Source: Mycoplasmatota bacterium
GTDB taxonomy: Bacteria > Bacillota_I > Bacilli_A > Izemoplasmatales > Izemoplasmataceae
DNA length: 35,933 nucleotides
Reading direction: 5' to 3'
Assembly (NCBI GenBank): GCA_030600605.1
Contig: JAUVLT010000013.1
Location: 1-35,933, forward strand
The notes under the pieces are model-generated. The model did no database searches. It saw only the letters and a program-made list of their open reading frames with translations, and was not told the DNA's origin. This document shows positions 34,174-35,933 of this stretch, in pieces. Position numbers and translations under genes: made by a program. Each line of letters starts with the position of its first letter. The stretch's first letter is position 1.

Positions 34174-34370
34174 AAAAATCCTCCAATATGATAAAAGGAT
34201 GCTTATCTTTATTAGATAATCATCCTATTTTAGATTGTATTTTTCGAGAATAATAAACAAAGGTCGCTTAAAACTAAAACGCCTTGATTTTGTATCGAGA
34301 TCAATTCTCTTTTTAAGATTATATTCATAATAGTCAGCCTCGATTCGTATAAATAGTTTTCTTAAATACA
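34174..34370 (-). promoter_or_regulatory. Structured 5' leader of the glutamate fermentation operon
   Basis: About 200 untranslated bases separate the promoter from glmS. On the minus strand several helices can form: AATCGAG with CTCGATA enclosing an ATTAT-GAAT-ATAAT hairpin and a GAGA-ATTGA-TCTC hairpin; a second arm, CAAGGCG...CGACCTTTG; and a strong hairpin at 34196-34226 shortly before the ribosome binding site. I find no match to the cobalamin-riboswitch B12 box or other classes I know. It could be an attenuator or an unrecognised riboswitch. Confidence 0.5.
34196..34226 (-). terminator. Attenuator-like hairpin before glmS
   Basis: AGGATG-C-TTATCT (34196-34208) pairs with AGATAA-T-CATCCT (34214-34226), 12 bp interrupted by one mismatch, loop of 5. 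On the minus strand it is followed by TTTTAT and then the glmS ribosome binding site about 10 bases on. A transcription attenuator is plausible, but the T run is short. Confidence 0.55.
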
Positions 34371-34376
34371 TATAAT

Positions 34377-34404
34377 ATTATACCTATTATATAATATAAA
34401 TCAA
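34377..34404 (-). promoter_or_regulatory. Promoter of the glmS operon
   Basis: TTGATT (34399-34404), 16-base spacer, TATAAT (34377-34382) on the minus strand. Unlike most promoters here it lacks the TGn extension. Confidence 0.75.
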
Positions 34405-34422
34405 GTTTTTTTGAAAAGTTTT

Positions 34423-34436
34423 TGAAAGCGCTTGTA
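34423..34436 (+). promoter_or_regulatory. cre-like CcpA site upstream of the glmS operon
   Basis: TGAAAGCGCTTGTA fits cre consensus TGWAARCGYTWNCW at 13 of 14 positions. It ends 19 bases upstream of the -35 box on the minus strand. CcpA bound here could repress or activate the operon. Confidence 0.55.
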
Positions 34437-34458
34437 AAAACAGGCCTATAATGTAATA

Positions 34459-34480
34459 AAAACACCTTTTAAGGTGTTTT
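34459..34480. terminator. Palindromic terminator-like hairpin
   Basis: AAAACACCTT (34459-34468) and AAGGTGTTTT (34471-34480) form a perfect inverted repeat with a TT centre. No complete gene ends next to it: the glm operon starts to its left and the TnpB element lies to its right. It may be the terminator of a minus-strand gene that was separated by the insertion. Confidence 0.5.
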
Positions 34481-34500
34481 ATCGTTTTTGTTCAAGAAGA

Positions 34501-34531
34501 CCCCCATTTCAAACATAAGTTAAGTGGAGGG
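34501..34531. mobile_element. Isolated hairpin resembling an IS200/IS605 right end
   Basis: CCCCCATTT (34501-34509) pairs with AAGTGG-A-GGG (34522-34531), a 9-bp stem with one bulged A, as in IS200/IS605 subterminal hairpins. It is preceded by CAAGAAGA; the window itself ends in CAAGAA after the tnpB 3' hairpin, so this could be a copy of the same right end. No transposase is attached. This is inference from shape and a short match. Confidence 0.35.
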
Positions 34532-34611
34532 ATGAATTGAACTTATTTTTTTGGTTCGCTTTTTTTCAATATATTTCACAAGAAATACACATTAGCTTAG
34601 CCATAATATGA

Positions 34612-34617
34612 TATAAT
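34612..34617 (+). promoter_or_regulatory. Extended -10 promoter upstream of tnpB
   Basis: TGATATAAT (-10 at 34612-34617) lies 118 bases before the tnpB GTG. No good -35 is seen. It may come from the element or from its target site. Confidence 0.4.
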
Positions 34618-34644
34618 ATAAGTATAAATGATTAATGATATTAC

Positions 34645-34705
34645 GTTGTGCCGAGAATATAACCTGTGAGCCTAATCATAGTTTTAAAGTTCTTTTTGGT
34701 ACAAC
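34645..34705 (+). other. Long-range stem in the tnpB leader, possible left-end structure
   Basis: GTTGTGCC (34645-34652) pairs with GGTACAAC (34698-34705), 8 bp with one wobble, enclosing 45 bases. It lies between the promoter and the tnpB ribosome binding site and may belong to the left end of the element. Confidence 0.35.
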
Positions 34706-34734
34706 ATTTTTTTATAGAAAGCAGGTAATTAATA

Positions 34735-35901
34735 GTGAAAGAGATTAGAAGAAAAGGATATAAATATAGAATATATCCAAATGAAGCTCAAACACTTTTA
34801 ATCAACATGACTTTCGGATGTGCTCGTAAGGTTCATAATCTATATCTAAATGAAAAAAAAGTAATATATGAGTTATATAAAGATTATCCTAAGTTACTTA
34901 GATCTCATACTTGTCGAACACCAGCTGTCCATAAAGTATCATATCAATATTTAAAAGAGGTTGATTCACAAGCATTAGCAAGTGAGTGTCAAATTGTAAA
35001 TGACAGCTTTAGAAACTTCTTCAAAGGTACTCATGGATATCCTAAATTTAAAACTAAAGATGATAGTAAACAATCTTATACATCACATACAACCAATAAT
35101 AATATCCGAATTGAAGGAAGCAAAATAAGAATTCCTAAGGTAGGGTTAGTTAAAATGAAGAAACATCGAGAATTACCTGATGGGGCTATTATTAAAGCTG
35201 TCACAGTATCAAGAAGTGCATCAAGCAAAGATTATGTATCTCTTTGAATAGAATATGAAGAAGAGATAGTTAATATAGATAAGAAGATCCTTAACATAAT
35301 AGGTTTAGATTTTTCACTTAATAACTTATACATAGATCATTTAGGTAGGAAAGCCAACTATCCTAAATATCTTAAAAGTTCATTAGGTAAACTAGCCTTA
35401 GAACAAAGAAGACTTTCACATAAAAAGAAGGGCAGCAACAATCGTAAGAAACAAAGAATTAAAGTAGCTAGAGCATATGAGAAGATATCAAATCAAAAGA
35501 ATAACTTTCATCATAAGTTATCAAGGAAGTTAGTTAATGATTATGATGTAATTTGTGTAGAATCATTAGACTTAAAAGAAATGATGAAGAATAAACGTTT
35601 CAGTCTTAAGATTAATGATAATAGCTACAGCAAGCTACTTAACTACATATCATATAAAACAAAAGATGAGGGAAAATCCCTCATCAAAGTTAATAAATAT
35701 TATGCATCAAGTAAAATATGTAGTGTCTGTGGTAATAAGAAAGAGAAACTAGCTCTTTCTGAGAGAACATATAAATGTGAATGTGGAAACATAATAGACA
35801 GAGATATTAATGCAGCTTCTAATATCGCCTATGAAGGATTACGTATTCACTATACAAACCTTATAAAACAAGAGGCTGGGACAGCCTTGTTAGCTTGGTA
35901 A
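34735..35901 (+). pseudogene. tnpB: TnpB RNA-guided nuclease gene of an IS200/IS605-type element, interrupted by one in-frame TGA
   Basis: A GTG at 34735 with GAAAGCAGG upstream opens a TnpB frame that continues in the same phase to TAA at 35899-35901. The only break is a TGA at 35245-35247, codon 171. All three RuvC acidic residues are kept: D in IIGLDFSLNN, E in VICVESLDLKE, and D in NIIDRDINAASN. The zinc-finger cysteines CSVCG and CECG are also kept. The N-terminus KEIRRKGYKYRIYPNEAQ is typical. Because UGA is a stop in this genome, the product would be truncated to 170 residues; TTA (Leu) to TGA is the simplest origin. No TnpA transposase lies nearby. TnpB uses the transcript of its right end as guide RNA. 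The premature stop suggests recent decay. Confidence 0.9.
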
Positions 35902-35904
35902 ATT

Positions 35905-35922
35905 TACGAACAATGGTTCGTA
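35905..35922 (+). ncRNA. Start of the element's 3' end / guide-RNA scaffold hairpin
   Basis: Three bases after the tnpB stop, TACGAAC (35905-35911) pairs perfectly with GTTCGTA (35916-35922), loop of 4. In IS200/IS605 elements the right end downstream of tnpB forms the omega-RNA scaffold. The rest lies beyond the window. Confidence 0.5.
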
Positions 35923-35933
35923 TTACCCAAGAA

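What the first reader, a model, noticed from the sequence alone, without database searches (positions are those of the whole stretch)
34735..35901. TnpB intact in every catalytic residue but interrupted by one UGA
The frame on both sides of 35245-35247 is continuous, and the RuvC triad and zinc finger are conserved. UGA is a stop here (prfB present; five genes end in UGA). Either this is a very recent nonsense mutation (TTA to TGA), or the element came from a UGA-Trp mollicute, or readthrough gives low TnpB. The position normally holds an aliphatic residue, which favours mutation.
Basis: partly seen in the sequence, partly recalled or inferred. Interest (0 to 1): 0.5.

Follow-up and report, generated by a model that had tools for sequence, protein, structure and literature searches.

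The report
Transposon nuclease gene with nonsense mutation
A small jumping-gene nuclease in an uncultured bacterium is cut short by one stop codon at a spot where its closest relatives have arginine, so it is most likely an ordinary, recently broken copy and not a sign of an altered genetic code.

Summary
In detail: tnpB at 34735-35901 is one frame broken only by TGA at 35245-35247, with the RuvC residues and cysteines present. Some details do not. At codon 171 the 10 closest distinct homologues fetched (47.9-77.8% identity) all have Arg, neither aliphatic nor Trp; the 10 more distant ones vary, two with Trp. A point mutation of an Arg codon is the simplest origin. UGA is a stop here. dN/dS to the nearest relative is about 0.11 and low on both sides of the stop, so the lesion looks recent.

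New context: the window is a contig end. Two left flanks (C72, C90) and two right flanks (C110, C83, sharing exactly 141 bases) show at least two copies, so this tnpB is probably a collapsed consensus and the stop may not be in every copy. No Y1 transposase was found in the genome. Terminal-only copies of 64-69 bp exist, a known kind (PATEs). Verdict: ordinary nonsense-broken, tnpB-only IS605-type element. Side lead: a conserved terminator-like leader before tnpB, shared with a very distant tnpB.

The parts
34478..34534 (+). left end of the element: TTTAT target (34478-34482) and near-terminal palindrome (extent by eye)
   Evidence: 34477-34613 is identical to the last 137 bases of contig C90 and diverges just to the left; TTTAT at 7 of 7 left-end places (with a pattern that held TTTAT; it recovered the six left-end places plus the window)
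34612..34617 (+). TATAAT, likely -10 box of the tnpB promoter
   Evidence: read from the sequence; function inferred
34625..34718 (+). conserved leader; arms GTTGTGCC (34645-34652) and GGTACAAC (34698-34705) followed by a T run: terminator-like
   Evidence: 89% identical in G002, 83% in G007 before a very distant tnpB, 73% in G004_C125; two pairs changed on both sides among 4 sequences, reached by 65 of 500 shuffles
34735..35901 (+). tnpB, 388 codons, interrupted
35245..35247 (+). TGA at codon 171; Arg in the 10 closest homologues
35308..35310 (+). D192, RuvC-I acidic residue, downstream of the stop
   Evidence: GLDFS or GLDYS in the 10 rows; role is family knowledge
35560..35562 (+). E276, RuvC-II acidic residue
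   Evidence: role is family knowledge
35581..35583 (+). M283, first in-frame ATG/GTG/TTG after the stop, already past D192 and E276
35803..35805 (+). D357, RuvC-III acidic residue
   Evidence: role is family knowledge
35872..35933 (+). right-end region / probable guide-RNA scaffold, overlapping the end of tnpB; continues 47 bases on contigs C110 and C83 to GGTTCAC
   Evidence: the 109-base stretch as it stands on C110 folds at -38.1 kcal/mol, z -3.78, 1 of 200 shuffles as good

Best explanation
This is a tnpB-only (IS1341-type) IS605-family element whose TnpB, an RNA-guided nuclease family, was recently knocked out by a single point mutation that turned an arginine codon into a UGA stop. Translation should end after 170 residues, before any RuvC residue, and the first ATG/GTG/TTG downstream lies beyond RuvC-I and RuvC-II, so neither fragment should cut DNA. 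The ends and the right-end RNA fold are intact, and tnpB is dispensable for transposition, so the element may still move if a Y1 transposase comes from elsewhere; none was found in this genome. Shown: the single stop, Arg in the close homologues, low dN/dS, at least two copies, no Y1 match. Inferred: loss of nuclease activity, movement in trans, and the ancestral codon.
For: Single stop, no frameshift, three domains intact. Arg at codon 171 in 10 of the 10 closest homologues. dN 0.134, dS 1.17 against G002_C63; after the stop 0.116/0.944, before it 0.185/2.50 (dS near or past saturation, so rough; the part before the stop is residues 87-170 only, because the G002 contigs begin there). Changes derived on the window's branch: 8 of 84 sites before the stop, 15 of 214 after (Fisher p 0.47). 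UGA is a stop. No Y1_Tnp match in G000.
Against: The window's tnpB is probably a collapsed consensus of two or more copies, so the allele of each copy is unknown. The window's branch has more resolved unique amino-acid changes than G002_C63's (23 against 8, binomial p 0.011; 35 further differences were unresolved and dropped), which could mean longer relaxation. Its third-position branch is also about twice as long or more, but that tree does not group the window with G002 and is near saturation, so the point stays open. No reads were available to rule out a sequencing error.
Confidence: 0.82

Rival explanations
1. Assembly or sequencing artefact: the repeat was collapsed and a rare or erroneous base was kept in the consensus, so intact copies exist in the same cells.
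For: Two right-flank contigs share exactly 141 bases and two left flanks enter the element, which fits a branch in a k=141 assembly graph; that graph assemblers merge near-identical copies is recalled. C110 and C83 differ by one base in the right end, so the copies are not identical.
Against: A two-copy repeat should have extra depth, and one in-frame substitution without an indel is not the usual error pattern (both inference). Reads could not be examined.
Confidence: 0.1
2. Functional read-through: UGA is leaky here and gives a little full-length TnpB, as dosage control.
For: The frame after the stop is conserved; the base after TGA is A, a context often called leaky (recalled).
Against: None of the 10 closest homologues has a stop at this site, so the stop is not conserved; a recent mutation explains the intact downstream frame equally well.
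Confidence: 0.05
3. Transfer from a mollicute that reads UGA as Trp.
For: Two distant homologues (30.6% identity) have Trp, TGG, at this site.
Against: The close homologues are in the same genus, family or order, have Arg here and no internal stop. The 388-codon gene holds no other in-frame TGA.
Confidence: 0.02

Closest known systems
IS1341-type (tnpB-only) elements of the IS200/IS605 family
   Same: tnpB alone between palindromic ends, fixed TTTAT at the left end, RNA-scaffold-like right end
   Different: tnpB is interrupted by one UGA; a short conserved leader precedes it
ISDra2 TnpB (PMC8612924; abstract and passages seen)
   Same: same protein family; guide RNA from the right end; tnpB dispensable for transposition
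   Different: ISDra2 has TnpA and TTGAT; here no TnpA was found and the left target reads TTTAT
PATEs and decayed IS605 elements of Haloquadratum and Halanaerobium (PMC3119063, PMC7290912; passages seen)
   Same: terminal-only copies with fused ends, ascribed in PMC3119063 to repeat-mediated core deletion; all IS200-type transposons reported as pseudogenes in one Haloquadratum strain
   Different: other organisms; here four such copies of 64-69 bp plus one longer decayed copy

Membership tests
TnpB (OrfB_IS605) nucleases | OrfB_IS605, TNB and HTH domains | tested here: met
   on the protein read through the stop
TnpB (OrfB_IS605) nucleases | uninterrupted frame through the RuvC residues | tested here: not met
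   TGA at codon 171, upstream of D192, E276 and D357
TnpB (OrfB_IS605) nucleases | RNA-guided DNA cleavage | not testable with these tools
   needs an assay
IS1341-type element | tnpB without tnpA in the element | tested here: met
   no ORF of 80 aa or more between the left end and tnpB; no Y1_Tnp match in the own genome
IS1341-type element | palindromic ends and a fixed left target | tested here: met
   TTTAT at 7 of 7 left-end places. The pattern held TTTAT and had an alternative written to fit the decayed C37 copy, but it recovered all six places that match the left end, plus the window.
IS607-type element | serine recombinase TnpA | not tested
   the serine recombinase family was not searched
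TldR (nuclease-dead TnpB repressors; recalled) | lost RuvC catalytic residues with the frame kept | tested here: not met
   residues kept, frame broken
UGA-Trp recoded gene | UGA at Trp positions | tested here: not met
   Arg in 10 of the 10 closest homologues; 0 TGA against 66 TGG in 30 window ORFs

The most novel reading that the evidence does not exclude
The nonsense allele is the one that spread: both copies carry the stop, so a TnpB-null, TnpA-less element still multiplied on outside transposase. Alongside this, the conserved leader (34625-34718) would be a mobile transcription-attenuation module that different tnpB genes share, so that tnpB is normally kept nearly silent.
Probability: 0.15. 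Interest if true: 0.45.

Novelty: new member of a known kind. Interest (0 to 1): 0.15.

Why it matters
Mainly as a caution: a single in-frame UGA in a gene of a Mycoplasmatota relative invites a recoding or read-through story, but the homologues at that codon and the contig layout point to a plain nonsense mutation in a repeated element. If the leader proves to be an attenuator, it would be a control element of tnpB genes for which no Rfam family reached its threshold here.

Tried and rejected
Recoding: rejected (Arg, not Trp, in the close homologues; prfB present; no in-frame TGA in 30 window ORFs). tRNA evidence was uninformative: Rfam gave 48 tRNA matches; ARAGORN read 45 genes in the stretches around them, 2 without an assignable anticodon, and none of the other 43 has UCA. 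None has the normal Trp anticodon CCA either, so the set is incomplete.

Close relatives elsewhere: none in the viral-contig scan; plasmid matches are all under 60% identity; the phage collection was not searched. The one genome-contig scan gave 3 loci, two of which have the lengths of the G002 contigs.

Rfam: no family reached its threshold in 34300-35933 (matches listed up to E 10). In 8 related loci, which include the G002 and G004_C125 leaders but not G007's, two families matched, neither at the leader.

Leader: the order-wide search with the covariance model found 4 of 90 genomes, with stricter filters, and these are the model's own four sequences. The DNA search had 5 further short matches of 25-38 bases, not followed. 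My long patterns were faulty (one N too many; the window's own leader did not match), so their zeros mean nothing; I did not repeat them. The 16-base pattern in viral contigs gave 15 stretches, none matching the model. In 19 partly overlapping loci around tnpB relatives the only strong match was the known G004_C125 one; two weak ones have E 0.37 and 0.85.

Literature: in the titles listed (10 of 16 papers; 3 of 3; 2 of 2; 10 of 28; 8 of 20) I saw none about an internal stop in tnpB as a mechanism or a tnpB attenuator leader. The library is partial and most of these papers were not opened.

Full report
What is there. The window is contig C72 (35,933 bases) of a 1.51-Mb, 115-contig genome, 99.7% complete. 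Near its right end, 34735-35901 is a tnpB frame of 388 codons with one in-frame TGA at 35245-35247 and no other stop. The protein read through the stop has three TnpB-family domains.

Is UGA a stop here? Yes. prfB is in the window (487.7 bits). 5 of 30 ORFs end in TGA and none of their 10,797 sense codons is TGA, against 66 TGG. The 30 were taken from 37 listed: five short plus-strand ORFs over minus-strand genes and the two tnpB pieces were left out.

What stood at codon 171? In one search, with duplicate loci left out, 20 distinct homologues besides the window cover the codon. The 10 at 47.9-77.8% identity all have Arg: CGT in both G002 copies and G042, CGA in G004_C125 and G001_C21, CGC in both G028 copies, AGA in G004_C118 and both G012 copies. 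The 10 at 30.6-40.6% have Leu 3, Ser 2, Trp 2, Thr 1, Ile 1 and Phe 1; in some of these a gap lies near the site, so the column is less sure. The clade's residue is therefore Arg.

How old is the stop? Against G002_C63, dN/dS is 0.134/1.17 over 301 codons, 0.185/2.50 before the stop (residues 87-170 only) and 0.116/0.944 after it (dS is near or past saturation). On the protein tree the window's branch is about 2.4 times that of G002; on third positions it is also about twice as long or more, but that tree does not group the two. Resolved unique amino-acid changes are 23 against 8, with 35 unresolved, so some relaxation on this branch is not excluded. Changes are not concentrated after the stop (8 of 84 before, 15 of 214 after; Fisher p 0.47). 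233 of 3,483 single substitutions in this gene, 6.7%, would make a stop, so the lack of a second stop only bounds neutral decay to some tens of substitutions (my arithmetic). Together: recent, but not datable.

How common are broken tnpB genes nearby? In one search (30 matches in 61 genomes), 17 matches of about 300 residues or more lie in other genomes; 2 of the 17, both in G041, hold internal stops, all TAA. Four shorter fragments (one in G041, one in G003, two in G031) also hold stops, two of them with a TGA. Breakage is ordinary here.

The element. Its left end begins at TTTAT, 34478: the end of contig C90 is identical for 137 bases and diverges just to the left. Its right end lies 47 bases beyond the window, on contigs C110 and C83, which share exactly 141 bases, then differ by one base inside the right end before their flanks part. 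Two left and two right flanks mean at least two copies, or a mixture of strains; the window's tnpB is probably their collapsed consensus. That a 141-base overlap marks a k=141 assembly branch is recalled; the G002 contigs carry 'k141' in their titles. The G002 copies likewise begin inside tnpB at contig starts.

Mobility. The genome has no Y1 transposase match. Among 61 genomes 6 have one, and at five places it lies beside a tnpB: G001_C21, G004_C118, G042_C81, G041_C29 and G041_C6. G002 and the single-contig G028, each with two or more tnpB matches, have none, so tnpB-only elements are not peculiar to the window. Four terminal-only copies of 64-69 bp (C105, C112, C51, C66) and a decayed one (C37) lie elsewhere in the genome. 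Such forms are known as PATEs, ascribed to repeat-mediated core deletion (PMC3119063, passages; also PMC7290912, passages). tnpB is dispensable for transposition (PMC8612924, abstract), so a nonsense allele need not stop the element from moving.

Mechanism. A 170-residue product ends before D192, and the first ATG, GTG or TTG after the stop is M283, past D192 and E276. Neither piece holds the full triad. The right end still folds strongly (109 bases, -38.1 kcal/mol, z -3.78), so guide RNA could still be made; this is inferred.

Side lead. Bases 34625-34718 form a leader with strong matches in three other genomes: 89% in G002, 83% in G007_C6 and 73% in G004_C125. The G007 copy precedes a tnpB so distant that a direct comparison finds no significant similarity (E 0.077), though it has the same Pfam domains OrfB_IS605 and TNB. 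The stem GTTGTGCC/GGTACAAC, followed by a T run, has 96.9% of cells paired over 4 sequences with two pairs changed on both sides; for the whole structure tested, 65 of 500 shuffles do as well, so support from covariation is weak, while slid partners pair in 20-57% of cells against 98.3%. A second helix, ATGATTA/TAATCAT, crosses it and never varies. The single-sequence fold is not exceptional (z -1.37). A 13-codon ORF, 34628-34669, lies inside. The model finds only its own four sequences in 90 genomes of the order. A transcription attenuator or insulating terminator is my guess.

Verdict. An ordinary nonsense-broken tnpB in a repeated element; the recoding and read-through readings are not supported.

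Noticed in passing
window 34625-34718: Conserved terminator-like leader before tnpB, also found before a very distant tnpB in G007 (L124:1662-1755, minus strand); 4 of 90 genomes of the order by the model.
   Followed up: partly
L050-L053 (contigs C105, C112, C51, C66): Four terminal-only copies of the element, 64-69 bp, with left end fused to right end; the one on C51 ends about 90 bases before a second release-factor match (C51:37477-38484, below the prfB cut-off, probably prfA).
   Followed up: partly
L054 (contig C37): Decayed copy with left end, part of the right-end region and right end, and no tnpB match.
   Followed up: no
L095 (contig C5) and L096 (contig C65): Dense arrays of 16 and 12 tRNA genes, many a few bases apart; phage or main tRNA clusters, not decided. 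L105 (C108) holds two tRNA-like genes that ARAGORN cannot assign.
   Followed up: no
L059:48-171 and L060:2903-2977, minus strand: Rfam matches DUF3800-I RNA and c-di-GMP-I riboswitch near tnpB loci of G004.
   Followed up: no
contig C110 (L005): The element's right end abuts an ORF that follows a metK-like gene; its stop codon seems to be formed at the element junction. Gene name and reading are by eye, not from a search.
   Followed up: no
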